Source: Metasolibacillus sp.
GTDB taxonomy: Bacteria > Bacillota > Bacilli > Bacillales_A > Planococcaceae
Assembly: GCF_025291715.1 (NCBI RefSeq)
Contig: NZ_JAMBIZ010000035.1
Coordinates: 1 to 39,073 of the forward strand
Direction of reading: 5' to 3'
DNA length: 39,073 nucleotides
Made by a program: the position numbers and the translations under genes. Within the stretch, counting starts at the first letter, position 1; the number at the start of each line of letters is the position of its first letter. Shown one piece after another: positions 15,771-39,073 of the stretch. The notes under the pieces were generated by a model that was given only the letters and a program-made list of their open reading frames with translations, had not been told where the DNA came from and did not search any database.

Positions 15771-15778
15771 TTTTAGGA

Positions 15779-15862
15779 GGCTATCGAAAATTTTTCGGTA
15801 GCCTTCAACTGTGCTGAAGAGGTCTTTGAAAGCTGATTTTCCAAGCTTTAAGGCTTTTTTTT
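15779..15862 (+). terminator. two successive hairpins after aroA, the second a terminator
   Basis: GGCTATCGAAAA pairs with TTTTTCGGTAGCC (15779-15803) but lacks a T-run. AAGC/GCTT (15843-15856) is followed by a run of T and is the likelier stop. Together they fill most of the aroA-ccpA gap. Confidence 0.65.
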
Positions 15863-15880
15863 GTCGATTTACGTTTTTTA

Positions 15881-15909
15881 TTGAAAAAGGAAATGAAAGT
15901 ATATATGAT
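15881..15909 (+). promoter_or_regulatory. sigma-A promoter of ccpA
   Basis: TTGAAA (15881-15886), a 17-bp spacer and TATGAT (15904-15909), 45 bp before the GTG start. Confidence 0.65.
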
Positions 15910-15953
15910 GAAGTATAAGAAAAGTTGAGATAAGAGGATTGGAGGCGATTATA

Positions 15954-28571: not shown

Positions 28572-28580
28572 TTAATGAAT

Positions 28581-28624
28581 AAAGCGCATGCTATCAAATT
28601 GAAAAATTTGGTTCATGCGCTTTC
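28581..28624. terminator. bidirectional terminator between tyrS and ohrR
   Basis: AAAGCGCATG (28581-28590) pairs with CATGCGCTTT (28614-28623), with an inner CAAATT/AATTTG stem. Confidence 0.85.
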
Positions 28625-28626
28625 AT

Positions 28627-29043
28627 CTAGCCATTGTGTAAAATATCTTGAAGAACATTTTTCAGCTGGATAAATTGCTGCTCAGAGATATTGGATTGTT
28701 TCATTACTTGATGGGACACCGCGGGTAGCTCACGACGAACATGACGACCTTCTTCTGTTAAATAGATTTTCATTAGGCGTTCGTCCTGCTTAGAACGCTC
28801 ACGACAAATATAACCCTTTGCCTCTAATTTTTTTAGTAATGGTGTTAATGTACCTGAATCTAAAAATAAACGTTGTCCCAATTCCTTAACCGTAATTTGT
28901 TCATTCTCCCCCAAGGCTAATAAGGTGATATAACCTGTATAAGTTAAATCATATGGCTTCAACAATAAAGTGTATTGACGGATGATTTCTTTTGATGTGA
29001 CATACAAAAGAAAGCATAATTGATTATCTAAATGTTTAGGCAT
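28627..29043 (-). CDS. ohrR: OhrR-type MarR-family peroxide sensor
   Basis: OhrR represses ohr until organic hydroperoxides oxidise a conserved cysteine near the N-terminus. The 138-aa protein begins PKHLDNQLCFLLYVTSKEII, where the Cys in NQLCFLLY (residue 10) matches the reactive Cys15 of B. subtilis OhrR. The winged helix follows (TVKELGQRLFLDSGTLTPLL, DERLMKIYLTEEG). There is no second cysteine in the C-terminal half, as in the one-Cys OhrR class. ATG 29043 has AAAAGGGG before it. It diverges from ohr across a region with two matching operators. Confidence 0.9.
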   Translation of the reverse strand: MPKHLDNQLCFLLYVTSKEIIRQYTLLLKPYDLTYTGYITLLALGENEQITVKELGQRLFLDSGTLTPLLKKLEAKGYICRERSKQDERLMKIYLTEEGRHVRRELPAVSHQVMKQSNISEQQFIQLKNVLQDILHNG

Positions 29044-29101
29044 AAAAATCCCCTTTTAAAAATACTTTTAATAATATTTATATTAAAAATAAAGTTCATA
29101 C

Positions 29102-29160
29102 TTGTCAAATGCAATTTAATTGTGTACAATTCAATTTATAAAAAATGAATTGTGCACAAT
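29102..29160. promoter_or_regulatory. ohr promoter with two OhrR-like operators
   Basis: The promoter is TTGTCA (29102-29107), 17-bp spacer, TACAAT (29125-29130). Operator 1, AATTGTGTACAATT (29118-29131), covers the -10; operator 2, ATTGTGCACAAT (29149-29160), lies just past the start. Their centres are 30 bp apart, three helical turns. The known OhrR box is built from TACAATT/AATTGTA half-sites, which these resemble. Confidence 0.75.
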
Positions 29161-29187
29161 CAAATAAATGAATAAGGAGTTTTTGTT

Positions 29188-29592
29188 ATGAAAGAATTAT
29201 ACACAACTACAATGATTAATGACGGAGGGCGCAGTGGCACATCATATGCAGAAGATCAATCTTTATCTTTAAAAATTGCACCTCCTGGCTCAAAATTAGA
29301 AAATGTTACAAATCCAGAGCAATTATTTGCTGCAGGCTATAGTGCCTGTTTTAATAGTGCGTTAGATTTAATTAAACGCCAACAAAAAATGAAAAATGTA
29401 TCAACGATTAAAGCCACAGTAAAATTAATGGAGCAAGCTCCTTTTGATTACGTGCTAGCTGTAGAAATCGAAGGGCATATCGAGGGATTGCCATTGGAAG
29501 AAGCGCAACAATTATTAGAATTGACACATACTGTATGTCCATATTCAAAAGCAACAATGGGAAATATCAATGTAAGCATTAAAGCAGTTTAA
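29188..29592 (+). CDS. ohr: organic hydroperoxide resistance protein Ohr (OsmC family)
   Basis: Ohr is a thiol peroxidase that reduces organic and fatty acid hydroperoxides in the cytoplasm. The 134-aa protein shows the family marks: YTTTMINDGGRSGTSYAEDQ, NPEQLFAAGYSACFNSALD with the peroxidatic Cys, and LTHTVCPYSKATMGNINV with the resolving Cys. ATG 29188 follows AAGGAG. It starts a two-gene unit with a nitroreductase and faces ohrR, the usual arrangement for regulator and target. Confidence 0.94.
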   Translation: MKELYTTTMINDGGRSGTSYAEDQSLSLKIAPPGSKLENVTNPEQLFAAGYSACFNSALDLIKRQQKMKNVSTIKATVKLMEQAPFDYVLAVEIEGHIEGLPLEEAQQLLELTHTVCPYSKATMGNINVSIKAV

Positions 29593-29620
29593 AAATTTTT
29601 TTGAAAAAGAGGAAAATAAA

Positions 29621-30247
29621 ATGTTATCAACTACATCTATAAAACAAATTATGCAAGATCGTCAATCAGTTCGTAAATACAATGTTGAAACTAAAATATC
29701 TCGTGAAACAATTAGGCAACTGTTACAAGATGCTATTTCAGCACCTTCTTCAAGTAATATGCAACCATGGCGCTTTATCGTCATAGATGATAAGGAAATT
29801 CAAAAAAATATTAATTTCTTTTCATTTAATCAAGAGCAAATAGAAACTGCCTCTGCAATTATTGCTGTTATTGGAGATACTGAAATGTATTTAAATGCTG
29901 AGACAATCTATGCACAAAATGTCGAGCTAGGCTATATGCCAGAAGAGGTAGCTAAAAACATGGCAAAAAATGCATTAGCCATGTATGGTGCAGCTTCAAC
30001 AAAAGTATTAGAAAACATCGTACACTTTGATGCTGGTTTAGTATCCATGCAAATCATGTTATTGGCGAAGGAAATGGGCTATGATACAGTACCGATGGGT
30101 GGGTTCGATAAAGCGAAATTTGCTGAATACATGGAACTGCCTGCAAATGAAATTCCTATTTTATTATTAGCGATTGGTGAAGCGGCAGCACCAGCCTATG
30201 GTTCATCACGCCTTCCACTTGATCGTATTGTAAGGTTCAATAAATAA
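29621..30247 (+). CDS. nitroreductase-family flavoprotein
   Basis: This 208-aa protein is of the NfsB/YdgI-like nitroreductase family, FMN enzymes that use NAD(P)H to reduce nitro compounds, quinones or related electrophiles. Seen: RQSVRKYN (FMN phosphate contact), AISAPSSSNMQPWRFIVID (FMN loop), HFDAGLVSMQIMLLAKEMGY and the C-terminal RLPLDRIVRF. Ribosome site AGAGGAA precedes ATG 29621. It lies 28 bp after ohr, so it is probably induced with it. The substrate cannot be read from sequence. Confidence 0.9.
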   Translation: MLSTTSIKQIMQDRQSVRKYNVETKISRETIRQLLQDAISAPSSSNMQPWRFIVIDDKEIQKNINFFSFNQEQIETASAIIAVIGDTEMYLNAETIYAQNVELGYMPEEVAKNMAKNALAMYGAASTKVLENIVHFDAGLVSMQIMLLAKEMGYDTVPMGGFDKAKFAEYMELPANEIPILLLAIGEAAAPAYGSSRLPLDRIVRFNK

Positions 30248-30253
30248 ATTTTA

Positions 30254-30291
30254 GGCAATGTCCCACAATAGATGGTGGACATTGCTTTTTT
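30254..30291 (+). terminator. intrinsic terminator after the nitroreductase gene
   Basis: GCAATGTCC (30254-30262) pairs with GGACATTGC (30277-30285), followed by six T. It closes the core-genome part; phage-derived genes begin after it. Confidence 0.88.
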
Positions 30292-30434
30292 GGTGATTAC
30301 TTGGAATGTTGTAGTATTAATAATGAACAATCAATACTGTGAAATTGATTTACGTGAGCGCAAACTGAGGTATATGATAGCCAAAGTAGCAACGGCTTCA
30401 ACTATGATATCTTTAAAACAATAGACATCGTAGG

Positions 30435-30923
30435 TTATTTATCAATCCAATATATATGATTATATTTATTCATGAAGTATTTATTTAACCGAGTTTCCGC
30501 AAATTCATACTCCACGTTAAATTGCTGCTGCACGTGTAAAATATCATTTTTTGTAGCTCCATACAATTCCATACGCTCCAGCATAAAACTAGGCACACAA
30601 GCATGGTACATAAAATTATTGGCTTTATGCTCTTGATATTGATGAAAAAGCGGAGGCAAGTTAAATTGGTTGCCACTATGCAGCAGCACATGACATAGTT
30701 CATGACAAAAATCCTGCCATTCTTTTTCAGGTGATAGGTTTTCCTCAAGAAAAATATAAGCGCGTCCTTCGATAAATAAAGCCTGGCTACACTCTGACCA
30801 ATAAAACACTTTTATGCCTAATCTGGTAGCGATTTCTTGAAAGCTTAATAAAGATAAATCTGTAATGCCCAGCTGCTTATAAAAGTGCGTAATATAATCC
30901 TCAAGATGTGTATAATAGTACAT
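30435..30923 (-). CDS. ImmA/IrrE-type metallopeptidase
   Basis: ImmA-type zinc proteases cleave their partner XRE repressor; in ICEBs1 this releases the element after DNA damage. The 162-aa protein has FCHELCHVLLHSG, i.e. HExxH with its following His region, and the third ligand region YQEHKANNFMYHACVP (Glu-His-x-x-Asn, typical of this family). The N-terminus is helical. ATG 30923 follows TAGGAG. It lies downstream of the XRE repressor gene on the same strand, but a terminator and a LexA-type box separate them, so it seems to have its own SOS-type promoter. Confidence 0.88.
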   Translation of the reverse strand: MYYYTHLEDYITHFYKQLGITDLSLLSFQEIATRLGIKVFYWSECSQALFIEGRAYIFLEENLSPEKEWQDFCHELCHVLLHSGNQFNLPPLFHQYQEHKANNFMYHACVPSFMLERMELYGATKNDILHVQQQFNVEYEFAETRLNKYFMNKYNHIYWIDK

Positions 30924-30949
30924 TGAAACAACTCCTAAAATGCCTTAGA

Positions 30950-30961
30950 GAACATTTGTTC
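30950..30961 (-). promoter_or_regulatory. LexA/DinR box upstream of the ImmA-like gene
   Basis: GAACATTTGTTC is a perfect GAACNNNNGTTC core, 27 bp before the ATG. Upstream on the minus strand the T-rich tail of the preceding terminator includes TATTATAAAAT, a possible -10. LexA bound here should repress the protease gene until DNA damage. Confidence 0.75.
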
Positions 30962-30964
30962 TGT

Positions 30965-31005
30965 TTTATTTTATAATAAAACCTCACATTTTGCTAGTGA
31001 GGTTT
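30965..31005 (-). terminator. terminator between the repressor and ImmA-like genes
   Basis: AAACCTCAC (30979-30987) pairs with GTGAGGTTT (30997-31005). On the minus strand the 3' side continues TTATTATAAAATAAAA, a T/A-rich tail that may double as the promoter of the protease gene. Confidence 0.7.
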
Positions 31006-31056
31006 GGCATATTATTGATAAATCAGCAGGAATCCCCACTGATTATTAGGGTCATT

Positions 31057-31419
31057 TTAAAGCTCTCCATGATCCTTTAAAATTTCCCACATTTTGCGTA
31101 GCTTTTCTAAATCCTCTTCCTTTGACTTCGGCAATTCCTTATACCATTTTTGCAGCGTCGGATTATTAGCGAATGCTTGAAATTCAGCTTCATCCTTTTC
31201 CTCTTGTGTCAATGTAGACGAAGTAGAACGCCCAAGAAGATAGTCTGTGCTAACATCCAGTACGTTTGCTAATTGCAATAATTCATTATCTTTGACAGGT
31301 CGTTCATTTGCTTCAATTCTATTCATAACGCTAACATTAAGATTCACTCGGCTTGCTAGCTCTCTTTGTGTCCATCCTCGGCTTTCTCTTAATGAAACGA
31401 TTCGCTTTCCGATATTCAT
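31057..31419 (-). CDS. XRE-family phage repressor (ImmR/CI-like)
   Basis: The 120-aa protein has an N-terminal helix-turn-helix (IGKRIVSLRESRGWTQRELA, NVSVMNRIEANERP) and the linker DVSTDYLLGRS. The C-terminal domain carries EFQAFANNPTLQKWYKELP and EEDLEKLRKMWEILKDH. That C-terminal motif recurs in the second repressor at 36521-36898. Three ATGs in a row (31425, 31422, 31419) follow AAGCGGTGA; 31419 has the best spacing. It should bind the four 15-bp repeats upstream and be cut by the ImmA-like protease. Its promoter, TATAAT at 31458-31453 on the minus strand, is overlapped by one operator, fitting autoregulation. Confidence 0.88.
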   Translation of the reverse strand: MNIGKRIVSLRESRGWTQRELASRVNLNVSVMNRIEANERPVKDNELLQLANVLDVSTDYLLGRSTSSTLTQEEKDEAEFQAFANNPTLQKWYKELPKSKEEDLEKLRKMWEILKDHGEL

Positions 31420-31452
31420 CATCATTCACCGCTTTCAGAGATTTCATACTTC

Positions 31453-31563
31453 ATTATAGCATGTTTCTATTTTAGAAACCATAAATTTCTTTAATAGAAA
31501 TTTTTAGCTTGAATTTCTGTTTTAGCAATGATATAGTAGTGATAATAGTTGCTGAAATAGAAA
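31453..31563. promoter_or_regulatory. divergent immunity promoters with four 15-bp operators (module 1)
   Basis: Four related palindromes occur: TTTCTATTTTAGAAA (31464-31478), TTTCTTTAATAGAAA (31486-31500), TTTCTGTTTTAGCAA (31514-31528) and TTGCTGAAATAGAAA (31549-31563), consensus TTTCTRNNNTAGAAA. The rightward promoter is TTGAAT (31509-31514), 17 bp, TATAGT (31532-31537), with the third operator in its spacer. The leftward -10 is TATAAT (31458-31453, minus strand), next to the first operator. Confidence 0.82.
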
Positions 31564-31602
31564 TTTTAATATCGGGTAATAGACAACGAAGGAGGATTAA
31601 GA

Positions 31603-31779
31603 ATGAGCAAAGAAAATCAACAAATCAATGTATTTGAAAATGGTATTTATATTGTACAGGATGGATGTATTACACCATTAAAGCCAAAAGATTTTGGACA
31701 AGATACAATCATTTGGAAAAATGGGCGCGTACTAGATGTAGAACGAGCAGAGCGAATCCGCATTCAACAAATTAAATAA
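31603..31779 (+). CDS. DUF3954-like small phage protein
   Basis: The 58-aa product starts MSKENQQINVFENGIYIVQD and goes on with GCITPLKPKDFGQDTIIWKN then GRVLDVERAERIR. The pattern 'ENGIY-V-DG-ITP...ITW-NGK' is that of DUF3954, small proteins common in Bacillus phages with no known role. AGGAGG precedes ATG 31603. It is the first gene under the rightward immunity promoter and is followed by a strong terminator, so it may be the only gene of this early transcript unless read-through occurs. Confidence 0.7.
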   Translation: MSKENQQINVFENGIYIVQDGCITPLKPKDFGQDTIIWKNGRVLDVERAERIRIQQIK

Positions 31780-31801
31780 TTGTCCCTACGGAAAAACCGA
31801 C

Positions 31802-31852
31802 GGACACTAATTGATTTTGGTTATGTAACCAAGTCGATTAGTGTCCTTTTTA
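31802..31852 (+). terminator. strong intrinsic terminator after the DUF3954 gene
   Basis: GGACACTAAT (31802-31811) pairs with ATTAGTGTCC (31837-31846), with an inner TTGGTTA/TAACCAA stem, then TTTTTATTTT. It stands between the early promoter and the late activator gene. Confidence 0.88.
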
Positions 31853-31915
31853 TTTTGATTTAGGAGATGACAACTACCAAAGGCGTAATTGATTTGAAAA
31901 GAAAGGAGCAAGCAG

Positions 31916-32431
31916 ATGGTTAAATATTTTCCAGATTTAATTGAAGAATATAAGCAATCATTAAAAAAATTGCAGAAAATAGGCGGATGTTCAAGCATGG
32001 AGCGTGATGTAAAGGAGGCGATTCAATGGATGGAAACAGGCTATGATCCAGCTGAGTATCGAGCAGCCACTCGCAAGGATTGTTATGTAATGGACCATTA
32101 CTTGATGCAGCAGTTTCTGTTATCCGTTGATTGTGATTTCACTGCATCTGATAGTAATCAACAGCAGCTAAATAATGAGGAGAATCGAATAGATAGCATG
32201 CAAAGTATTATAAAGGAAGCGCTAGTGGGATTAACAGAAAATGAGCGTAAAGTATTCATACTCATCCGCGCTGAATATATGACATTTGCGAAAGTAGCGG
32301 ACATTTTAGAAATTACACGTAGCTCTGTGCAAAGCTATTTAAGAAGGGCTGAATTAAAAATAAAAAACAATATTAACTGCAAAAAACTAATCTGTCATGA
32401 AAGCGGCTATATCATGAAAGATTCATTTTAA
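31916..32431 (+). CDS. Xpf/ArpU-like sigma-factor-like phage activator
   Basis: The 171-aa protein ends with a sigma-70 region-4-like helix-turn-helix: LTENERKVFILIRAEYMTFA, KVADILEITRSSVQSYLRRA. Proteins of this kind (Xpf of PBSX, ArpU family) turn on phage late genes, including lysis. The N-terminal half (FPDLIEEYKQSLKKLQKIGG, a CYVMDHYLMQQ segment) is helical. GAAAGGAG precedes ATG 31916. Its last codons (GYIMKDSF) are echoed twice in the DNA just downstream. It precedes holin and amidase, the likely targets. Confidence 0.78.
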   Translation: MVKYFPDLIEEYKQSLKKLQKIGGCSSMERDVKEAIQWMETGYDPAEYRAATRKDCYVMDHYLMQQFLLSVDCDFTASDSNQQQLNNEENRIDSMQSIIKEALVGLTENERKVFILIRAEYMTFAKVADILEITRSSVQSYLRRAELKIKNNINCKKLICHESGYIMKDSF

Positions 32432-32524
32432 AGACTCGCCATACAAATGCCTATATAGTGAGGAATTCATTTTAGGTGAAGCAGCTTGCCATACAAACAC
32501 CTATATAGTGAAAGATTCATTTTA
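32407..32524 (+). repeat. imperfect tandem copies of the 3' end of the activator gene
   Basis: The gene's last bases, CTATATCATGAAAGATTCAT then TTTA (32407-32430), recur at 32451-32474 and 32501-32524; the last two copies extend to a 37-bp unit starting GCCATACAAA, 50 bp apart. Each copy would still encode YI(M/V)(K/R)(D/N)SF plus stop, so they look like duplications of the coding end. They may also be binding sites ahead of the holin gene. Confidence 0.75.
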
Positions 32525-32552
32525 AAAGCAATGTCTTAAGGGAGGTGGTCAA

Positions 32553-32957
32553 ATGGAAAAATATATCGCTATAGTGAGCGGCACTGTTGGCACGGTTGTA
32601 TCTTATTTAGTTTGCGGCTTAGGTATGGCTGTTACAGTGTTGATTGCACTAATGGCATTAGATTATGTGACGGGGCTTTTGCAGGCGATGACGAATCGTT
32701 CGCTCAATTCTCGTGTAGGATTCAATGGCATTATTCGTAAAATTTATTATTTAATGTTGGTAGCAGCCGTTTATTTAATTGCACTTGTCATACCTGGTAT
32801 TGAGTATGCAGGCGATGGTGCGGCCATCGCTTTTTGTGTGCTCGAATTTATCAGTATTACCGAAAATGGCACAAAGATGGGCTTATGGATGCCAAGCTTT
32901 ATCAAAAATTTATTGGCGATTGTGAAAGATAGAACGGGGGAGGGTGATGCAAAATGA
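32553..32957 (+). CDS. phage holin (Phage_holin_4 / TcdE-like)
   Basis: The holin makes lesions in the membrane through which the endolysin reaches the wall. The 134-aa protein has membrane segments near 5-40, 62-85 and 88-105 and the family motif IALMALDYVTGLLQAMTNRS with NSRVGFNGIIRKIYYL; the end is charged (VKDRTGEGDAK). This class includes TcdE, also used for toxin release in Clostridioides. GGGAGGTGG precedes ATG 32553. The stop overlaps the amidase start (ATGA), so the lysis pair is coupled. Confidence 0.92.
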   Translation: MEKYIAIVSGTVGTVVSYLVCGLGMAVTVLIALMALDYVTGLLQAMTNRSLNSRVGFNGIIRKIYYLMLVAAVYLIALVIPGIEYAGDGAAIAFCVLEFISITENGTKMGLWMPSFIKNLLAIVKDRTGEGDAK

Positions 32958-33577
32958 GCTACTTGTTTAAGCAAAGCCTATTACCTGCAAGTAAATATGT
33001 GATGAAAGCTCCCTTCACGATGGTTGCTGAATATATTACAGTGCATAATACTGCCAATGATGCTTCGGCAGCTAACGAGGTAGCTTACCACAATCGCAAT
33101 GACAATCAAATCAGCTTTCATATTGCTATAGATGATAAAGAAGTTATACAGTGCATTCCATTTAATCGTAATGCGTGGCATTGTGGAGATGGTCAAGGGG
33201 CAGGAAATCGCAAGTCTATTGGTGTCGAAATTTGCTACAGCAAAAGTGGCGGAGCACGTTATGAAGCGGCGGAGGAAAATGCTGTACAATATATGGCTTC
33301 ACTATTACAACAATTTGGCTGGGGCGTTGATCGTATTAAAAAGCATCAGGATTGGAGTGGCAAATATTGCCCACATCGCATTTTAGAGGAAAAACGCTGG
33401 GATAGCTTTAAGGAGCGCATACAAAAAGCATTGGATAAGGAGAAAAAGATGGATTTAATGGTCGTGCTGAAATTCGCGCATTGCTTAAAAAAGCACGAGA
33501 AAAAAATATTATTAATAAAGCGATACACACAGACACAGCCACAGCCATTGAACAATATGATGATATTCAATTATTGA
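32954..33577 (+). CDS. N-acetylmuramoyl-L-alanine amidase (endolysin), tail frameshifted
   Basis: The endolysin cuts the bond between MurNAc and the stem peptide. Residues 1-165 are an Amidase_2 domain with zinc and catalytic residues: ITVHNTANDA (His), SFHIAIDDKEVIQCIPFNRN, NRKSIGVEICYSKSGG (Glu) and KKHQDWSGKYCPHRIL (His, Cys region). After ALDKEKK the frame gives an unlikely Lys/Gln tail, while the -1 frame from 33448 continues as a well-formed helical protein. One lost A in the run 33443-33447 explains this. The catalytic domain is untouched, so activity may survive; the C-terminal targeting part would be lost. ATG 32954 overlaps the holin stop. Confidence 0.9.
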   Translation: MSYLFKQSLLPASKYVMKAPFTMVAEYITVHNTANDASAANEVAYHNRNDNQISFHIAIDDKEVIQCIPFNRNAWHCGDGQGAGNRKSIGVEICYSKSGGARYEAAEENAVQYMASLLQQFGWGVDRIKKHQDWSGKYCPHRILEEKRWDSFKERIQKALDKEKKMDLMVVLKFAHCLKKHEKKILLIKRYTQTQPQPLNNMMIFNY

Positions 33578-33612
33578 GCTATCAAGCAGCTGTTATGAAT
33601 CGGGTATTTTAG
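33448..33612 (+). pseudogene. original C-terminal part of the amidase, now in the -1 frame
   Basis: This frame reads DGFNGRAEIRALLKKAREKN, IINKAIHTDTATAIEQYDDI and QLLSYQAAVMNRVF then stop, a balanced helical sequence. It has no start codon of its own; a TAA lies 9 bp upstream in this frame. Adding one A to the five-A run (33443-33447) joins it in frame to the amidase. It could be a true mutation or a sequencing error in a homopolymer. Confidence 0.75.
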
Positions 33613-33619
33613 AAATATA

Positions 33620-33668
33620 AAGTGTCTGAAAAGTGGTTTAGCATACCACTTTTCAGACACTTTTTTTG
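33620..33668 (+). terminator. strong terminator after the lysis genes
   Basis: AAGTGTCTGAAAAGTGG (33620-33636) pairs perfectly with 33646-33662, followed by a T-run. It closes phage module 1. Confidence 0.92.
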
Positions 33669-33714
33669 TTTTATAAAAAAGGCTGAAAACATTAGCTTTA
33701 ACAAATATTACATA

Positions 33715-33762
33715 TTGCAAAAATGGAATAAATGTTCTATTATAAATACAAACAAACGTTCT
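33715..33762 (+). promoter_or_regulatory. promoter with LexA-like box before the WYL-like gene
   Basis: TTGCAA (33715-33720), 17 bp, TATTAT (33738-33743). CAAACAAACGTTCT (33749-33762) fits CGAACNNNNGTTCG at 8 of 10 positions and lies over the expected start, as LexA sites often do. Confidence 0.55.
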
Positions 33763-33782
33763 TGTTAGGGGAGTGAAATGAA

Positions 33783-34007
33783 ATGCGTAATCAGCTTATA
33801 AAAGCGCTGCAGCATCAGTTATTATTGGATATTATCTATATAGCGAAGGATGGAAAAATGTCGAAACGACGTGTGAAATTAATTAAAATAACTGGCGAGA
33901 CGGCGCAGGCATATTGCTTTACGAAACAGGCGAAGCGCACTTTTATCATTGAAAACATACTGGCCATTGCTCCAAGCAAACAAAAAGGACATCAAAATAT
34001 CGTATAG
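33783..34007 (+). CDS. small WYL-like protein, possibly SOS-controlled
   Basis: The 74-aa protein (RNQLIKALQHQLLLDIIYIA, DGKMSKRRVKLIKITGETAQ, AYCFTKQAKRTFIIENILAI) looks like the small stand-alone WYL-type proteins of Bacilli, an SH3-like fold that binds nucleic acid or ligands; some lie in SOS operons with yolD and Y-family polymerase genes. GGGGAGTGA precedes ATG 33783; a nearby ATG at 33778 is out of frame. No yolD or polymerase gene is next to it here, so it may be the remainder of such an operon. Confidence 0.65.
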   Translation: MRNQLIKALQHQLLLDIIYIAKDGKMSKRRVKLIKITGETAQAYCFTKQAKRTFIIENILAIAPSKQKGHQNIV

Positions 34008-34269
34008 CAGTCTAAGTCTTTCTAGAAAGAGAATCGAGGACACAAAATCCCTTTACGGTTACACCATAGATGGAAAACCCATATACGGATTTTCCATAAA
34101 CGAAAAAGCCGCAACTACTAAGTACTTATATAACTAATTACTAATTAACTAATTACTTATTATATAAAATACTAATTTAAAATAATGATGATGTCCCTTT
34201 TCTTATTGTTACTTGCTATTTAAAGTGTAAGGGAATCAAGAGAGGCTGTTTGGGTGGCGATCATTTCAT
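34008..34269. other. gap with AT-rich heptamer repeats and a possible gene remnant
   Basis: An open stretch ending at 34137 encodes LYGYTIDGKPIYGFSINEKA, which looks like real protein but has no start of its own and no family I know; it may be a remnant. Beyond it, 34133-34181 holds several ACTAATT-like units in a row. No gene is supported. Confidence 0.4.
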
Positions 34270-34311
34270 AAAAAAACCGCCAAATGCTTGATATACAAGC
34301 ATTGGCGGTTT
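34270..34311 (-). terminator. terminator after the integrase gene
   Basis: A long stem, AAACCGCC with AATGCTTG/CAAGCATT inside (one bulge), is followed on the minus strand by seven T. It ends transcripts coming from the integrase. Confidence 0.85.
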
Positions 34312-34332
34312 GAAATTTAGAAAATTAACGAG

Positions 34333-34418
34333 AAGAATACTCTACAGATTCTTAAACCATTGTGGCTGTAGGGCTAAAAGGGTATTTTGAAAGTTGTTCC
34401 CCCAAATCTTCCCCCAAA
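34333..34418. other. candidate attachment region at the integrase 3' end
   Basis: Tyrosine integrases of temperate phages usually sit next to their att site. Just past the integrase stop are an inverted repeat AAGAAT/ATTCTT with 9 bp between (34333-34353), a possible crossover core, and two direct repeats TTCCCCCAAA (34397-34406 and 34409-34418), possible arm-type sites. The other att end would be beyond the window, so this cannot be proved here. Confidence 0.4.
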
Positions 34419-34439
34419 ACACCAAAACCAAGAGTGATT

Positions 34440-35606
34440 TTATCCATTCTTTAGTGCCTCTACGAATATATCTTTCGCCTTCTTTTTATCTCCTTCAATA
34501 ACATGTGCATATGTTTCCCAAATTACTTTTGGGGTATTACCCAGTCTAGCTGCAACTTCAGCAACATCTTCTCCGCTATATAACAATATAGAAGCATGTG
34601 TATGTCGAAGAGTATGTGGCTTCACAGTAAAGCCTAATTTATCTGACAGACGTTTGAAAGCGTAATAGACACTATTATCAGCATAAGGTTCTTTTGTTTG
34701 GTATGAAATAAAGACAAAATCATCTTTATCTAAAATTTGCCCATCCTCCAGTAACAATTCAGCACACCATACACGATATTTTTTTAGTAAAGCAATAAGT
34801 ACATCGTCAATTTCAATTGTACGATAACTATTTAAAGTTTTTGGTGTTCGATATCCTTTACGATCTCTTGTAGCTTCTATTGTAATAGTGCCTTTTTGTA
34901 AATCGACGTTACGCCATCTTAATGCAAGTCCCTCGCCACGTCGCATACCTGTGAAAGCAAGCGTACGAATGAATGAATAAGAAGTAATCGTTTCTTCTAT
35001 CTCAGCCAACATTAAAAATTCATTTAATCGCTGAATGCTTAATACATTTGCTACATCTTTTTCACCATCTTGAATAACTATTTTTGTAAATCGATTGCGC
35101 GATAAAATTTCGGCATCAACTGCAGCATTCACGGCTACTTTAAATATCCGATGAAATAAGCGTACAGTAGAAGGCTTATACTTTTTCAAAAGAGTGACAA
35201 TAAACTTTCGTTTGTATGTTTCTTTATCTAAAGAAGCTAATTTTAATTTACCAATAAGAGGTTTAATTTGATCTTCGATTATACTTTTTCTCTGTAATCG
35301 TGTTGTAATTTCCCATTCGAACTGATTGGATTCATACCATATATCCATCCAAGCTCCAACAGTCATATTTTCATTCTCCACTTGAAGTATGTTTCCATCT
35401 AATATTTGTGATTTAACTTCTAATAGCTTGCGGTAGGCAATAGCTTCTGTAGCTAGACCTTGTTTGCTTTTTTCTTTTCTAATTCCTAATACATTGTAGT
35501 AACGATAGCGATAGGCATACATTTTTTGCCCATTAGAATCAATATACCAGTATAAATCCTTATCTTGTTTACATCTATTCATCTCAGGTTTTTTGTTTTT
35601 TCCCAT
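34440..35606 (-). CDS. int: tyrosine-type site-specific integrase
   Basis: This recombinase inserts and excises the prophage. The 388-aa protein has an AP2-like N-terminal DNA-binding part (LYWYIDSNGQKMYAYRYRYY), a SAM-like core-binding domain (NMTVGAWMDIWYESNQFEWE) and the catalytic domain with Arg in FTGMRRGEGLALRW, KPHTLRHTHASIL (HxxR) and the tyrosine in WETYAHVIEGD. All expected residues are present. ATG 35606 is preferred over TTG 35621 because GGGAG lies at good spacing. Its type is common in Siphoviridae-like phages and ICEs of Bacilli. A 17-bp repeat (35626-35642) lies just upstream of the start. Confidence 0.95.
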   Translation of the reverse strand: MGKNKKPEMNRCKQDKDLYWYIDSNGQKMYAYRYRYYNVLGIRKEKSKQGLATEAIAYRKLLEVKSQILDGNILQVENENMTVGAWMDIWYESNQFEWEITTRLQRKSIIEDQIKPLIGKLKLASLDKETYKRKFIVTLLKKYKPSTVRLFHRIFKVAVNAAVDAEILSRNRFTKIVIQDGEKDVANVLSIQRLNEFLMLAEIEETITSYSFIRTLAFTGMRRGEGLALRWRNVDLQKGTITIEATRDRKGYRTPKTLNSYRTIEIDDVLIALLKKYRVWCAELLLEDGQILDKDDFVFISYQTKEPYADNSVYYAFKRLSDKLGFTVKPHTLRHTHASILLYSGEDVAEVAARLGNTPKVIWETYAHVIEGDKKKAKDIFVEALKNG

Positions 35607-35625
35607 ATTGACATCTCCCAATCTT

Positions 35626-35642
35626 TACACGGACAGGTGTAC
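35626..35642. repeat. 17-bp direct repeat, copy 1 (integrase upstream region)
   Basis: TACACGGACAGGTGTAC occurs here and again, identical, at 38290-38306. It has TACAC/GTGTA arms around GGACAG, so it looks like a protein site. The remaining gap to 36219 is AT-rich and holds an imperfect LexA-like GAATGTATGTTC (35687-35698) and the box described at 36053. Confidence 0.75.
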
Positions 35643-36033
35643 TGCTTTTGGGCTAAGTCTTGGCATCACTCCTTTCAAGCAAAATAGAATGTATGTTCAT
35701 CATTGTAAATAAACATACTAAAGCATGGACATCGAAAAACTATATTTACTGGCTACTTATCATTTTTTTAGTATTCGTTCTAATTGTCTCTTTTTAAAAA
35801 TATCACACTATATAGAGAAAGAAGGGAATTTCATTTTTTACGGATTGTTCTAATGTAAGCGTCGAGTGATTGTTAAAAAAATTATCCTCACAAAAGATGG
35901 AGATATTGTTGCTATTATCTCACTTTAATTGTTCGTTATCCGCTCGATTTTTGTCGAAATTTGTAATAACCTTGCAATTATTTTTTCTATGGGTGTTAAA
36001 CCCATTTAAAAATAATGCTTCCAATGATACTAT

Positions 36034-36064
36034 TATAATAATAGATTATTAGGAACAAGTGTTC
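36034..36064 (+). promoter_or_regulatory. promoter -10 followed by a perfect LexA box
   Basis: TATAAT (36034-36039) is followed 13 bp later by GAACAAGTGTTC (36053-36064), a perfect GAACNNNNGTTC. The next gene on this strand is the 88-aa ORF at 36220. A GAGGTGAT ribosome-like site at about 36080 has no usable start after it. Confidence 0.65.
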
Positions 36065-36219
36065 TTGTTTTTATTATAGAGGTGATGCTACAATAAATAA
36101 AGATAAATAGTATTAATATTCATATGTAAAATAAAAAAACATCTCAAGCTTACCTTGAAATGTGTTAAATGATTTAAGTGATATCCACCATAAACAAAGC
36201 AAAAGGGAGTGGGATGATT

Positions 36220-36486
36220 ATGAAAATTGAAAAGGATAATTGCTTTGAAGCTATTCTAAGTTTTTCAAAAACCTATAATATTACACCACCAAAAGATTTA
36301 GATTGTATTGAAATATGGTGGGAAAGTGCTATGAATCAACTTGATGATAGAGATATAAAGTTATTTTACATAGCATTTAAGATTGCTTTTAAGAATGACT
36401 TGCTCAATGGCGAAATAACATCAATGATGTTTAATGAGCTTGAAATTCGAGTTTCAGGAGCAAACGAATTTCAAGGTCTAGCTTAA
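36220..36486 (+). CDS. small phage protein of unknown function, LexA box upstream
   Basis: The 88-aa acidic protein begins MKIEKDNCFEAILSFSKTYN and includes PPKDLDCIEIWWESAMNQLD and a repeated FYIAFKIAFKNDLL. I do not recognise it. GGGAG (36205-36209) supports ATG 36220, with ATG 36214 as an alternative. It lies between the integrase and the CI-like repressor, transcribed against both, with a perfect LexA box about 155 bp upstream. Small LexA-controlled antirepressors (Tum of phage 186, for example) have similar size and control. That role is a guess from context. Confidence 0.65.
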   Translation: MKIEKDNCFEAILSFSKTYNITPPKDLDCIEIWWESAMNQLDDRDIKLFYIAFKIAFKNDLLNGEITSMMFNELEIRVSGANEFQGLA

Positions 36487-36492
36487 CTTTTA

Positions 36493-36522
36493 AAACACTC
36501 TCAAATAATTATGGGGGTGTTT
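36493..36522. terminator. terminator between the 88-aa ORF and the CI-like gene
   Basis: AAACACTCTC pairs with GGGGGTGTTT (two G-T pairs). The convergent genes can both use it; the T-runs are short. Confidence 0.6.
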
Positions 36523-36898
36523 ATTCTTGTGACTTTCTTTCATGCTTAATGATTTCCCAAATATCACGTAATTTCTTAACTGCTTCTTCATCCGATTCGT
36601 ATAGTTCACGATAAAATTGCTGTAATTCTGGATCATTAGCAAATGCTTGGAATGCAACTTCTTCGTCATTGTATGCTAAATTTCTCTCTTTTACATATAA
36701 TCCTCTGTTATCTTCTCTTCCTAATAAATAATCAACACTAACTTCATATAGATCAGCTATTTTTAAAAGTATTTCATTATCGGGTTCACGGTGCCCATTT
36801 TCAAAATGTGAATAACTAGCTCTAGAAATTCCTATAGCATGCGCAATCTCTTCTTGAGTCCTTTTTCCTCTAAGCTTTTTAAGTTTATGACCAATCAT
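36521..36898 (-). CDS. CI-like XRE-family phage repressor
   Basis: The 125-aa repressor has an N-terminal HTH (IGHKLKKLRGKRTQEEIAHA, ISRASYSHFENGHREPDNEI), the linker EVSVDYLLGRED and a C-terminal domain with AFQAFANDPELQQFYRELYE and EEAVKKLRDIWEIIKHE. The C-terminal domain closely parallels that of the repressor at 31057-31419, while the HTH differs. AAGGAGG precedes ATG 36898. It should bind the GATAC-type operators around its own and the cro promoter. There is no RecA-cleavable peptidase domain, so induction needs a protease or antirepressor. Confidence 0.9.
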   Translation of the reverse strand: MIGHKLKKLRGKRTQEEIAHAIGISRASYSHFENGHREPDNEILLKIADLYEVSVDYLLGREDNRGLYVKERNLAYNDEEVAFQAFANDPELQQFYRELYESDEEAVKKLRDIWEIIKHERKSQE

Positions 36899-36921
36899 TA
36901 TATCAGCCTCCTTGTATGTTC

Positions 36922-37031
36922 ATTATAGATACAAGTTGTATCTTTTAAAATAATTGGTACGAAAAGTATCAAAAATAGTTGACGATACGAAATGTATCTG
37001 ATATATTCTTATTAAAGATACGAATTGTATC
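36922..37031. promoter_or_regulatory. divergent CI/Cro promoters with four 15-bp operators (module 2)
   Basis: Operators: GATACAAGTTGTATC (36928-36942), GGTACGAAAAGTATC (36956-36970), GATACGAAATGTATC (36984-36998) and GATACGAATTGTATC (37017-37031), consensus GATACRANNTGTATC. The rightward promoter is TTGACG (36979-36984), 17 bp, TATATT (37002-37007), with the third operator in its spacer; the fourth lies past the start. The leftward -10 is TATAAT (36927-36922, minus strand), beside the first operator. Confidence 0.88.
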
Positions 37032-37049
37032 AGAAACGAGGTGATTTAC

Positions 37050-37283
37050 ATGCGTACAACTTTAATTGAACAACGTAAGAAGAAAAATTTAACACAAAGT
37101 GCTGTGGCTACTCTGTTAGGGATTTCCGAAATTTATGTTCGCAAGCTTGAAAATGGTGATAGAAATCCATCTATTACGATGATGTTGAAGTTTGAAAAAT
37201 TTTATTGTGTATCAATGAAAGAATTGTTCCCAGATATTTTTTTTGTAACAAATGATACGATTTGTACCAAAAACTTAGCGTAG
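37050..37283 (+). CDS. Cro-like XRE-family regulator
   Basis: The 77-aa protein is nearly all HTH: RTTLIEQRKKKNLTQSAVAT, LLGISEIYVRKLENGDRNPS, then MMLKFEKFYCVSMKELFPD. Its place opposite the CI-like gene, under the rightward promoter, is that of Cro. GAGGTGATTTAC before ATG 37050 fixes the start over GTG 37041. A fifth operator-like site lies in its 3' end. It would switch off the repressor gene when the phage enters lytic growth. Confidence 0.85.
   Translation: MRTTLIEQRKKKNLTQSAVATLLGISEIYVRKLENGDRNPSITMMLKFEKFYCVSMKELFPDIFFVTNDTICTKNLA
37254..37268. promoter_or_regulatory. fifth operator-like site inside the cro 3' end
   Basis: GATACGATTTGTACC fits the GATACRANNTGTATC consensus with one change in the right arm. 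It is within coding sequence, about 237 bp after the fourth operator and 27 bp before the Rha-type start, so it could help looping or control the next gene. Confidence 0.5.
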
Positions 37284-37294
37284 GAGGTTTTAAG

Positions 37295-37963
37295 ATGAAT
37301 CAATTACAAAACAACATTAACAGTTTGGAAATCGCTGAAATGGTTGGACGACGTCACGACCAAGTTTTACGGGATATTAACACTATAATTCTTCATTTAG
37401 GTAGTGACCACAAAAGTGTGGGCACGTATTTCATCGAAAGTGAGTACACAGATACACAAGGTAAGAAACGACCTTGCTACTTACTAACCAAAAAAGGTTG
37501 CGAACTTTACGGCACTCGCATGACTGGCGAAAAAGGTACTCAATTTGCAGTGAAATACATTGAGCGCTTTAACGAAATGGAGCAAGAAGTGCAAAAGGTA
37601 GTTCCATTATCCAAAGATCAAGCTCTCGTCACAGTTTTACGTACTACAGCAGATTTAGTTGAAGATACTCAAGCTATCAGACAAGAACAGCATGAAATTC
37701 GTAAAGAACTTTCAATGATTAATGAAAAGGTAGAAGAACAAATCACCCTAACTTCTGGTGAACAGCGTGCTGTACAGAAGGAAGTTGCTATTAAAGTTTA
37801 TGAAATTGAAAATGATACAACAATTCGACCTAAACTTTTCCGAGAGCTACATCGTGAAATTAAAGATCGCTTTGCTGTAGCCAGCTATAAAGATGTTCGT
37901 CGTCAAGAGTTACAAACGGTTATCAACTATATTCGCTCATGGGTACCTAGAAAGGTATCTTAA
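37295..37963 (+). CDS. Rha-family regulatory protein with ORF6C domain (antirepressor-like)
   Basis: The 222-aa protein has an N-terminal Rha domain (NNINSLEIAEMVGRRHDQVL, RDINTIILHLG, YFIESEYTDTQGKKRPCYLL, LTKKGCELYGTRMTGEKG) and a C-terminal ORF6C domain (LTSGEQRAVQKEVAIKVYEI, RPKLFRELHREIKDRFAVAS, VINYIRSW), joined by a coiled-coil (about 120-155). Such proteins are phage early regulators, often called antirepressors. TAGGAGG precedes ATG 37295, 11 bp after cro, so both share the rightward transcript. Confidence 0.88.
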   Translation: MNQLQNNINSLEIAEMVGRRHDQVLRDINTIILHLGSDHKSVGTYFIESEYTDTQGKKRPCYLLTKKGCELYGTRMTGEKGTQFAVKYIERFNEMEQEVQKVVPLSKDQALVTVLRTTADLVEDTQAIRQEQHEIRKELSMINEKVEEQITLTSGEQRAVQKEVAIKVYEIENDTTIRPKLFRELHREIKDRFAVASYKDVRRQELQTVINYIRSWVPRKVS

Positions 37964-38000
37964 CACTCTATTAAACTATCAACCAGATTGGAGGTATCAC

Positions 38001-38282
38001 ATGGAAGCAATAGCACAAGTTGAAGTCAAAGTAGACAAAGAATATATAGATTCAAAATATGAAGAAGAATTTAAAAAGCAAATTAATATCAAGAAAAAGC
38101 TTGTAACTATTGAACAACTATCAGAGCTATACAGTATGAAACGTGATGCGCTTGAGGAAGCATTTTTCAACGATCCACGTGTAAAAATCTATGAACGTCG
38201 TCGTGGAAAAGGCAAACGGTACTGGATAGCTGAAAAAGTGATTCCGATTATGGATGAAATCATTGAATATGAATGGGTTTAA
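38001..38282 (+). CDS. small phage protein with winged-helix-like C-terminus (excisionase/DUF771-like)
   Basis: The 93-aa charged protein (MEAIAQVEVKVDKEYIDSKY, INIKKKLVTIEQLSELYSMK, then KIYERRRGKGKRYWIAEKVI) has a helix-turn-helix-like middle and a basic wing with RRRGKGKRYW, as in phage excisionase-like or DUF771 proteins. ATG 38001 follows GGAGG; the longer frame from 37893 overlaps the Rha gene and is not used. It is probably an early DNA-binding protein. Family assignment is tentative. Confidence 0.7.
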   Translation: MEAIAQVEVKVDKEYIDSKYEEEFKKQINIKKKLVTIEQLSELYSMKRDALEEAFFNDPRVKIYERRRGKGKRYWIAEKVIPIMDEIIEYEWV

Positions 38283-38289
38283 AAAATAA

Positions 38290-38306
38290 TACACGGACAG
38301 GTGTAC
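38290..38306. repeat. 17-bp direct repeat, copy 2
   Basis: This is identical to 35626-35642 (TACACGGACAGGTGTAC), 2.66 kb away, in the non-coding DNA after the 93-aa gene. The two copies bracket the integrase-immunity segment. Confidence 0.75.
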
Positions 38307-38331
38307 AAAATTGGTGCTTAAAAATAACAGG

Positions 38332-38421
38332 GAGAGGCTAGGGCTAATTAGCCTCTCAAAAATAACCGAGGGCTATCGGTTAAGAAGAGCTAGGGCAATA
38401 GCTCAAAGCAAGTTAACTTGC
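38332..38421 (+). ncRNA. array of three stem-loops with similar GGGCWA loops, plus a palindrome
   Basis: Three hairpins follow one another in a gene-free stretch: GAGAGGCTA/TAGCCTCTC with loop GGGCTAAT (38332-38357), AACCGA/TCGGTT with loop GGGCTA (38364-38381), and GAGCTA/TAGCTC with loop GGGCAA (38387-38404). Stems differ while the loop is kept, and each closes with an A-T pair. A 14-bp palindrome GCAAGTTAACTTGC (38408-38421) follows. This pattern suggests a repeated RNA (or DNA) element read by a loop-binding factor; whether it is transcribed on its own is unknown. Confidence 0.5.
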
Positions 38422-38456
38422 TAACTAAATAATACAACAAAACTAAATAGAGGTGT

Positions 38457-38490
38457 GTTCGAAGATAGAACTTGTTCGATATTCGAACAA
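38457..38490. promoter_or_regulatory. two operator-like palindromes before the XRE gene
   Basis: GTTCGAAGATAGAAC (38457-38471) and GTTCGATATTCGAAC (38474-38488; with flanks TTGTTCGA/TCGAACAA) are 17 bp apart centre to centre and end just before the ribosome site of the XRE gene. Likely autoregulation sites. Half-sites point the opposite way to a LexA box. Confidence 0.6.
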
Positions 38491-38507
38491 CGAAAGGTAG
38501 ATTGATT

Positions 38508-38768
38508 ATGTATGGAGTGCATTTGAAGAATTTTAGAGAAAAAGCAAATATGACACAATCACAGGTGGCTGAGGCGATACATAAAAGTCGCTCAGCTATC
38601 TCGAAAATAGAGAATGGTGAGCAGGAGATTGATGCTTACTCAATTGTCCAGTGGGCAAGAGCAACAAATGCAGAGGCACAAGCAGCAATCATCATGTTTG
38701 GTGCAGATGTAATTGCGCATGCAGCACACATGCTGACGTTAGTTCCAGCGATGATAATTTGGTGGTGA
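38508..38768 (+). CDS. small XRE-family regulator with hydrophobic tail
   Basis: The 86-aa protein has an HTH (VHLKNFREKANMTQSQVAEA, IHKSRSAISKIENGEQEIDA) and then a hydrophobic C-terminus (AQAAIIMFGADVIAHAAHML, TLVPAMIIWW), which is unusual for a cytosolic regulator. AAAGG precedes ATG 38508; the longer frame from 38472 would run through the operator palindrome. The next gene starts 4 bp after its stop. Confidence 0.8.
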   Translation: MYGVHLKNFREKANMTQSQVAEAIHKSRSAISKIENGEQEIDAYSIVQWARATNAEAQAAIIMFGADVIAHAAHMLTLVPAMIIWW

Positions 38769-38772
38769 TTCT

Positions 38773-38904
38773 ATGAAATGGTTACTAGATTACTTTTTTA
38801 TGATTGATGATTGGCGAGAGCTTAGTGATAGCGATTTGACTTATCTTGCACTATTAGGTGGGGCAATTATATTAACTATTATTTTCGCAATTAATTTTTG
38901 GTAG
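38773..38904 (+). CDS. 43-aa single-span membrane protein, phage-type
   Basis: Product MKWLLDYFFMIDDWRELSDS followed by a membrane span (LTYLALLGGAIILTIIFAIN). GGTGGTGAT precedes ATG 38773, and the stop TAG falls in the next ribosome site region. No family recognised. The tight spacing on both sides supports it as a real gene of the early operon. Confidence 0.65.
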   Translation: MKWLLDYFFMIDDWRELSDSDLTYLALLGGAIILTIIFAINFW

Positions 38905-38915
38905 GTGATGAAACT

Positions 38916-39073
38916 ATGAAACCAGCTGTACGTTTAGCGCAAATCGAACTTGATACTCCTAACTGGGAGGACAATCCTGAACTTGTAGCAGAGGTCAAAA
39001 GACTACGTAAATTAATCGGCTACGGTAGACTACCGAACGATGTGAAAGCGAGAAACTATAACTATATAGTTTA
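38916..39073 (+). CDS. phage early protein, 3' end beyond the window
   Basis: ATG 38916 follows GTAGGTGATG. The visible 52 residues begin MKPAVRLAQIELDTPNWEDN and continue PELVAEVKRLRKLIGYGRLP; hydrophilic and helical. No family recognised. The frame is open to the last base. Confidence 0.6.
   Translation, partial: MKPAVRLAQIELDTPNWEDNPELVAEVKRLRKLIGYGRLPNDVKARNYNYIV

What the first reader, a model, noticed from the sequence alone, without database searches (positions are those of the whole stretch)
30435..33668. SOS-wired lysis cassette left from a prophage
The sequence shows an ImmA-like protease, an XRE repressor, divergent promoters with four operators, a DUF3954 protein, an Xpf/ArpU-like activator, a holin and an amidase, closed by a strong terminator. 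No capsid, tail, replication or integrase genes lie among them. By known roles this is a full path from DNA damage to cell lysis: LexA release, protease made, repressor cut, activator on, holin and amidase made. Phage lysis genes kept for vesicle release or altruistic lysis are known (PBSX in B. subtilis, pyocin Lys in Pseudomonas), but a unit this small with its own switch would be unusual. The frameshifted amidase may mean it is decaying.
Basis: partly seen in the sequence, partly recalled or inferred. Interest (0 to 1): 0.72.

Follow-up and report, generated by a model that had tools for sequence, protein, structure and literature searches.

The report
Tailocin locus stripped to lysis switch
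A bacterial weapon locus (a headless phage tail, or tailocin, released by cell lysis) has lost its tail genes in this strain, leaving a DNA-damage switch joined directly to the cell-lysis genes; similar stripped loci are known elsewhere, so it is an instructive variant, not a new kind of system.

Summary
An exact LexA core precedes immA and is kept in 5 of 5 genomes of the genus. In the same-species genome G002 and two other species the same switch lies between tyrS and rpsD and is followed by a contractile tail operon, with no capsid, terminase, portal or integrase match, then orthologous holin and amidase. A fifth, fragmented genome has switch and tail operon on two contigs. This is a tailocin locus, not an old full prophage. 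Against G002 the window lacks 14.5 kb, from the ribosome-binding site after the late-control repeats to the one before the holin, with 8 bp in common. The deletion also removed a terminator-like hairpin present before the holin in 3 of 3 contiguous relatives. Sequence predicts SOS-induced lysis without a weapon; none of this was measured. The stripped form is in 1 of 5 genomes, so it is no conserved domesticated unit. Precedents: R-pyocin-less P. aeruginosa keeping regulators and lysis genes, and short Listeria monocin loci keeping the protease.

The parts
30435..30923 (-). immA-like metalloprotease (M78, HExxH motif present); residues 1-107 like the tailocin orthologues, last 55 residues replaced
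   Evidence: regional identity 104/107 then 26/55 to G002
30950..30961 (.). LexA (SOS) box core GAACATTTGTTC, 26 nt before the immA start codon
   Evidence: exact core; an exact core lies 26-29 nt before immA in 5 of 5 genus genomes
31057..31425 (-). Xre/CI-type repressor, 122 aa
   Evidence: 92-99% identical in the 4 other genus genomes
31464..31478 (.). operator-like palindrome 1
31486..31500 (.). operator-like palindrome 2
31514..31528 (.). operator-like palindrome 3 (inside a promoter-like site 31509-31537)
31549..31563 (.). operator-like palindrome 4
31603..31779 (+). DUF3954 small protein
   Evidence: Pfam 1.7e-5 and phrog_4556 9e-11; directly before the sigma-like gene also in prophages
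31916..32431 (+). sigma-like late activator (Xpf/ArpU type), 171 aa
   Evidence: 98%, 84% and 83% identical in G002, G004, G001
32438..32461 (+). late-control repeat 1 (GCCATACAAANNCCTATATAGTGA)
   Evidence: only 2 exact copies in the held G000 genome
32488..32511 (+). late-control repeat 2
32533..32552 (+). deletion junction: 14.5 kb present in G002 absent here, ribosome-binding site to ribosome-binding site, 8 bp shared by the two G002 ends
   Evidence: 10.2 kb of the missing 14.5 kb was sought in G000: 5 pieces at 65-83% on C83 (a prophage) and 2 pieces of 35 and 99 bases elsewhere
32553..32957 (+). holin (Phage_holin_4_1)
32954..33577 (+). N-acetylmuramoyl-L-alanine amidase; catalytic domain complete, C-terminal region out of frame
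33619..33663 (+). terminator hairpin closing the unit
   Evidence: same hairpin in G002

Best explanation
The unit is a chromosomal tailocin (headless contractile phage-tail bacteriocin) locus that has lost its tail operon in this strain. In relatives, DNA damage should free the LexA site at immA, ImmA removes the Xre repressor, the DUF3954 gene and sigma-like activator are expressed, the activator fires the repeats behind its own gene, the tail operon is made, and holin plus amidase, placed last behind a terminator-like hairpin, burst the cell and release the particles. In the window a 14.5-kb deletion between two ribosome-binding sites sharing 8 bp removed the tail operon and that hairpin, so holin and amidase now directly follow the late-control repeats. 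Predicted behaviour: SOS-induced lysis, earlier and with no weapon, unless the frameshifted amidase end blunts it. Shown from sequence: anatomy, synteny, deletion, hairpin loss, recurring control sites. Inferred: every regulatory and lytic step.
For: Collinearity with G002: window 30560-32559 at 97.7% and 32538-34350 at 96.1% identity, with 14.5 kb between the two G002 ends. Tail operon in G002 identified by Pfam: tail terminator, sheath, tube, XkdN-type chaperone, tape measure, LysM, YQBQ, DUF2577, sheath initiator, Baseplate_J, Gp48, two tail-collar fibres; orthologues in G004, G001, G003. No match to terminase, portal, capsid or integrase references between tyrS and rpsD in G002, G004 and G001, while the C83 prophage used as control was found. 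Repressor in 5 of 5 genomes; LexA site in 5 of 5; operators recur; late repeat at 5 of 5 loci. Terminator-like hairpin before the holin in 3 of 3 contiguous relatives, absent from the window. 10.2 kb of the missing 14.5 kb was sought in G000: longest match 2.5 kb at 74%, in a C83 prophage. Sheath search: one G000 hit, on C83, 88%. Genes kept differ little from G002 (0-4 amino-acid changes in each of 5, immA not counted).
Against: G000 is a draft in 83 contigs and no reads were available, so a misassembly at the junction cannot be wholly excluded; the fibre end of the missing DNA (about 4 kb) was not sought. The amidase frameshift and the replaced C-terminus of ImmA may mean that the unit is already decaying. 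No transcription, particle or lysis data exist. That the sigma-like protein acts at the late repeats rests on position and recurrence only. G003 carries unrelated lysis genes and no such hairpin was found there, so the lysis module is exchangeable. The terminator scan listed the pre-holin hairpin of G002 only on the other strand; I picked it by eye and folding, and its search pattern was made from the three places where it was found.
Confidence: 0.82

Rival explanations
1. A decaying deletion remnant with no present function: the tail was lost by chance, the amidase broke, and the switch survives only because the loss is recent.
For: The amidase is out of frame only in the window among the 5 sequences compared and the ImmA C-terminus has been replaced. 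Divergence from G002 is small in the genes kept, so there was little time for selection to show. Deletion by an 8-bp match is an ordinary accident. The stripped form was seen in 1 of 5 genomes.
Against: The control sites and five of the six reading frames are open and whole, and the amidase catalytic domain, matching PDB chains 2l47, 1yb0 and 3hmb of 157-165 residues, is complete. Amino-acid changes assigned to the window lineage are 3 against 2 for G002 over five genes, too few to show decay or selection.
Confidence: 0.5
2. A kept (domesticated) self-lysis or vesicle-release unit, or a public trigger for other phages: its ImmA also removes repressors of co-resident prophages that lack a protease, as Listeria MpaR does.
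For: In G000 three repressors carry the same type of C-terminal tail (cassette, neighbouring prophage 36521-36898, C23:2747-3103). Of 5 M78 matches in G000 only the cassette one lies beside a tail-bearing repressor. Listeria monocin MpaR acts this way, and some Listeria strains keep short 3-6 gene loci that all include mpaR (PMC6872733 passages).
Against: The two orphan tails are only 51-57% identical to the cassette tail. The tail type is common in the family: 56 of 200 genomes. The neighbouring prophage is cut by the contig end, so a protease elsewhere in it is not excluded, and it has a LexA core of its own at 36053. The stripped form was seen in 1 of 5 genus genomes. The late repeats occur exactly nowhere else in held G000, so the activator is probably not shared.
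Confidence: 0.15
3. Remnant of an ordinary full prophage, as first read.
For: The DUF3954 + sigma-like gene pair also occurs in full prophages, e.g. G000 C16 with the sigma-like protein at 62% identity, so the switch has phage ancestry.
Against: At this exact place 3 of 3 contiguous relatives have a tail-only locus with no capsid, terminase, portal or integrase match.
Confidence: 0.04
4. Assembly artefact: the tail operon is present but was skipped in the draft.
For: Draft in 83 contigs; a sheath relative at 88% protein identity exists on C83.
Against: The shared 8 bp are far shorter than usual assembly word lengths (general knowledge). Of the missing DNA, 10.2 kb was sought and no long stretch above 74% was found on any contig. 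The junction reads cleanly from one flank into the other.
Confidence: 0.06

Closest known systems
PBSX-type defective prophages / phage tail-like bacteriocins of Bacillales (e.g. B. subtilis PBSX, Brevibacillus laterosporus PTLB, PMC9406221)
   Same: Xpf-like sigma factor, XkdK/XkdM/XkdN-type tail genes, holin plus XlyA-like amidase in relatives of the window; amidase 4e-32 to XlyA 3hmb. An Xre-type repressor in PBSX is recalled
   Different: Relatives here have no capsid or terminase match; PBSX makes a capsid (XkdG, PMC9406221 passage). The window has no tail genes at this locus.
Listeria monocin locus with MpaR (PMC6872733)
   Same: Tail-only locus conserved in a genus, CI-like repressor plus metalloprotease, oppositely directed promoters, holin-endolysin; short forms of 3-6 genes that keep the protease are reported (passages)
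   Different: Monocins are F-type; here the tail is contractile, and a LexA core sits before immA. The terms SOS box, LexA box and LexA binding do not occur in that paper's main text.
R-pyocin-less P. aeruginosa strains (PMC8262887)
   Different: Unrelated regulators (PrtN/PrtR type, recalled), and F-pyocin genes may remain there; the window keeps no tail genes at the locus.
PBSX holin-endolysin vesicle release (PMC5589764)
   Same: Induced expression of holin and endolysin genes gives cell lysis and vesicles in B. subtilis (passages)
   Different: There xhlA, xhlB and xlyA were all needed; here one holin and an amidase with an altered end.

Membership tests
Tailocin (phage tail-like bacteriocin) locus, parent form | tail gene set (sheath, tube, tape measure, baseplate, fibres) | tested here: met
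   relatives G002, G004, G001 contiguous and G003 on two contigs
Tailocin (phage tail-like bacteriocin) locus, parent form | no head, terminase, portal or integrase genes | tested here: met
   8 reference proteins from three prophage sets; no match at E 1e-3 among ORFs of 40 aa or more between tyrS and rpsD in G002, G004, G001; the C83 control was found. Replication genes were not sought separately
Tailocin (phage tail-like bacteriocin) locus, parent form | own regulator and holin-endolysin, fixed chromosomal place | tested here: met
   tyrS-rpsD in 3 of 3 contiguous relatives; repressor beside tyrS in 5 of 5
Tailocin (phage tail-like bacteriocin) locus, parent form | kills related bacteria as headless particles | not testable with these tools
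   needs particles and killing assays
Tailocin, window copy | tail genes present | tested here: not met
   absent; 14.5 kb missing. The window copy is a remnant, not a tailocin producer
Full prophage remnant | relatives carry head and integrase genes at the same place with the same switch | tested here: not met
SOS-regulated gene (immA) | LexA box in promoter region | tested here: met
   exact core in 5 of 5 loci, 26-29 nt before immA; binding untested
ImmR/ImmA-type switch | M78 protease with HExxH directly downstream of an Xre repressor with divergent early genes | tested here: met
ImmR/ImmA-type switch | protease removes the repressor | not testable with these tools
   no biochemistry possible
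Domesticated compact lysis unit | compact form conserved in several genomes | tested here: not met
   compact form in 1 of 5 genus genomes held; each of the other 4 has tail genes

The most novel reading that the evidence does not exclude
Having lost its weapon, the locus survives as a DNA-damage-driven trigger: its LexA-controlled ImmA, the only M78 protease found in this genome beside a repressor of the shared tail type, de-represses the neighbouring prophage and a second orphan repressor in trans, while holin and amidase, now next to the late-control repeats without their former terminator-like hairpin, set an early, weaponless lysis.
Probability: 0.12. Interest if true: 0.7.

Novelty: new variant of a known kind. 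Interest (0 to 1): 0.42.

Why it matters
It gives a natural before/after pair, G000 and G002 of one species, in which a tailocin has lost the weapon but kept the suicide step. If the cassette is still inducible, the pair could measure what SOS-induced lysis is worth with and without a payload (vesicles, DNA release, phage co-induction), a question usually confounded by particle killing. It also describes a genus-wide contractile tailocin at tyrS-rpsD with a LexA core before its immA gene. One search of the held library, for two names (Metasolibacillus, a guessed genus, and Bacillus ndiopicus) with tailocin and prophage terms, showed neither name in the 10 listed of 505 papers.

Tried and rejected
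Rejected: (1) full-prophage remnant, because relatives have a tail-only locus here. (2) Late activator shared with the second tail cluster in G000: that cluster (C83) has terminase, portal and capsid genes, and the late repeat occurs exactly in held G000 only at the cassette, plus one 3-mismatch site on C25. (3) 22-bp direct repeat at the deletion ends, suggested by overlapping BLAST matches: the sequences share only 8 bp. (4) G004 C2 repressor as an orphan with a tailocin-type tail (45 of 48 residues): a wider search found an M78 gene about 3.3 kb further on, so it is no clean orphan. In one search, 10 of 33 repressor loci had ImmA nearby; 5 of those 10 are the genus tailocin loci themselves, so 5 of 28 others. 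That count saw only about 1.5 kb of flank (less where contigs end) and understates pairing; one locus (L113) had no open tail frame. (6) Phage records: the sigma-like protein and ImmA have only matches under 60% identity, in 22 and 2 records of 50,697. (7) Solved-structure search with the sigma-like protein gave nothing at E 0.01. (8) Four small tail-operon ORFs of G002 gave no informative PHROGs family. Structure prediction was not used.

Papers: passages only of PMC8262887, PMC9836290, PMC6872733, PMC5589764, PMC9406221; others only as search listings. PrtN/PrtR naming and the PBSX Xre repressor are recalled.

Full report
What was checked. The window is the whole contig C28 (39,073 bases) of a draft genome G000 in 83 contigs. 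From left to right: M78/ImmA-like protease (30435-30923, minus), Xre repressor (31057-31425, minus), an intergenic region with four operator-like palindromes (31464-31563), a DUF3954 protein (31603-31779), a sigma-70 region-4 protein of the Xpf/ArpU kind (31916-32431), holin (32553-32957), amidase (32954-33577) and a 19-pair terminator hairpin (33619-33663). The phage integrase 0.8 kb further right (34440-35621) belongs to another element (see noticed in passing).

What it is. The sigma-like gene has a match in 5 of 5 genomes of the genus; in G003 this is only a prophage copy at 54% with stops in the matched stretch. The Xre repressor was found in 5 of 5 at 92-100% identity, on the tyrS side. 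In G002 (same species), G004 and G001 (other species) the locus is contiguous between tyrS and rpsD. There the switch and the sigma-like gene are followed by a contractile tail operon. In G002 Pfam names its products as tail terminator, sheath, tube (DUF2001), XkdN-type chaperone, tape measure, LysM protein, YQBQ, DUF2577, sheath initiator, Baseplate_J, Gp48 and tail-collar fibres. Holin and amidase orthologues come last. A comparison of all ORFs of 40 aa or more with 8 terminase, portal, capsid and integrase references found none in these three intervals, while a control prophage was recognised. In G003 the switch is at the end of contig C77 and the tail operon at the start of C23, which begins with the same late-control repeat; its lysis genes are different ones, and the linkage of the two contigs is inferred. 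G004 is Bacillus ndiopicus FF3, judged by matching contig lengths and coordinates. The parental form is therefore a tailocin locus.

The deletion. Against G002, window 30560-32559 matches at 97.7% and 32538-34350 at 96.1%, while the two G002 ends are 14.5 kb apart. The ends lie in two ribosome-binding sites that share 8 bp. The junction keeps a ribosome-binding site in front of the holin start codon. Of the missing DNA, a 10.2-kb query found in G000 5 pieces at 65-83% on C83 and 2 short pieces (35 and 99 bases) elsewhere; the longest, 2.5 kb, is at 74%. About 4 kb at the fibre end was not sought. C83 carries terminase, portal and capsid genes and is a contractile-tailed prophage. In G002, G004 and G001 a strong hairpin followed by a run of T sits directly before the holin (z -6.1 to -8.8). 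A pattern made from these three finds 3 places among the 144 loci then held (it was not found in G003, which has another holin) and no match in the window even with 3 mismatches. The automatic scan of G002 listed this hairpin only on the other strand, so calling it a terminator is my inference. Its loss would place holin and amidase directly behind the late-control repeats.

Control sites. A LexA core (GAAC-N4-GTTC) lies 26-29 nt before immA in 5 of 5 genomes. In the window 3 exact cores were found and 0.3 expected from 20 base shuffles; near-matches are not enriched (8 against 12.9). The four operators recur, with substitutions, in G002, G004, G001 and, by eye, in G003. The late-control repeat GCCATACAAANNCCTATATAGTGA occurs twice in the window and G002, three times exactly in G004, twice in G001 and once at the contig start in G003. 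In held G000 it is exact only at the cassette. Dependence of these repeats on the sigma-like protein is inferred from position.

State of the genes. Against G002 the repressor, DUF3954, sigma-like, holin and amidase catalytic regions show 1, 0, 3, 4 and 2 amino-acid changes; 3 are assigned to the window lineage and 2 to G002, too few to show decay or selection. The amidase is out of frame after the catalytic domain only in the window; intact copies exist in G002, G004, G001 and as a paralogue on G000 contig C8. The catalytic domain matches solved amidases 2l47, 1yb0 and XlyA 3hmb. ImmA matches its G002 orthologue at 104 of 107 residues, then at 26 of 55. The DNA left of it, with MarR, OsmC and nitroreductase genes, has no long match in the 4 other genomes; G001 and G004 gave only pieces of 38-47 bases. 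Part of the new immA end resembles a broken immA copy on G000 contig C16 at 78% over 116 bases.

How it most likely works. By established roles of these families: DNA damage, LexA cleavage, ImmA made, Xre removed, sigma-like protein made, late repeats active, holin and amidase made, lysis. In relatives the tail would be made in between and released. In the window the weapon is gone. I put about 0.45 on the cassette still causing lysis after DNA damage; the confidence of 0.82 concerns its identity and origin.

Comparison with what is known. Loss of tail genes with regulators and lysis genes kept is on record: 297 of 852 P. [quoted passage not shown] The Listeria monocin is a genus-wide tail locus with a CI-like repressor and metalloprotease MpaR, which also de-represses other prophages, and short loci of 3-6 genes all keep mpaR (PMC6872733, passages). 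Expression of PBSX holin and endolysin genes gives lysis and vesicles in B. subtilis (PMC5589764, passages). So the case is a variant of a known kind. What I did not see described is a ribosome-binding-site-to-ribosome-binding-site fusion that also removes a pre-holin hairpin; none of the nine library searches asked for that in such words, and only their top rows were seen.

A bolder reading. The last ~48 residues of the cassette repressor form a tail shared by repressors with different DNA-binding heads: 56 of 200 family genomes hold a match. In G004 a second repressor has 45 of 48 tail residues but a head at 31% identity, with 119 of 144 tail bases alike, which suggests that the amino-acid sequence of the tail is under constraint. 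In G000 three repressors carry such a tail, and of the 5 M78 matches in G000 only the cassette one lies beside a tail-bearing repressor. This fits a Listeria-like trigger in trans. Against it: the two orphan tails are only 51-57% like the cassette's and closer to each other; the neighbouring prophage is cut by the contig end and may hold a protease elsewhere; it has its own LexA core; the G004 repressor turned out to have an M78 gene about 3.3 kb away; and 10 of 33 repressor loci had ImmA within about 1.5 kb, 5 of them the genus tailocins themselves. I give it 0.12.

Verdict. Observation confirmed; interpretation partly supported. It is a deletion form, seen in 1 of 5 genomes, of a genus-conserved tailocin, with a complete predicted SOS-to-lysis path.

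Noticed in passing
window 34350-39073 and G000 contig C23 1-7200: A separate prophage appears inserted at the 3' end of rpsD: the G002 match ends at 34350 inside the rpsD end and an integrase follows (34440-35621); the full rpsD gene is on contig C23 next to phage lysis and repressor genes.
   Followed up: partly
window 36053-36486: Exact LexA core about 0.1 kb before a 102-aa ORF (36178-36486) with no Pfam match, lying between integrase and Xre genes in the neighbouring prophage; could be an SOS-controlled anti-repressor.
   Followed up: no
window 36521-36898; G000 C23:2747-3103: Two repressors with different DNA-binding heads share a nearly identical C-terminal tail, related to that of the cassette repressor; no M78 match lies on their contigs apart from the cassette's.
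   Followed up: partly
window 28572-30560: MarR, OsmC and nitroreductase genes and the end of immA stand where the 4 other genus genomes have a PBP-like gene; no long match to this DNA in those genomes.
   Followed up: partly
window 33783-34007: Small ORF, weakly WYL-like (below cut-off), with two 1-mismatch LexA cores before it (not above chance). A 63%-identical copy on G000 C23 and, by eye, one in G002 (L061) sit directly before a Y-family DNA polymerase gene, absent here.
   Followed up: no
G000:C83:12003-13313; G002:C1:129373-130683: Tail sheath of a prophage with head genes is 88% identical to the tailocin sheath, suggesting exchange of tail modules between prophage and tailocin.
   Followed up: no
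L065 (G003:C23) 15399-16519: The G003 tail operon is followed by a different holin and an unrelated endolysin-like ORF, so the lysis module of this locus has been swapped in one species.
   Followed up: no
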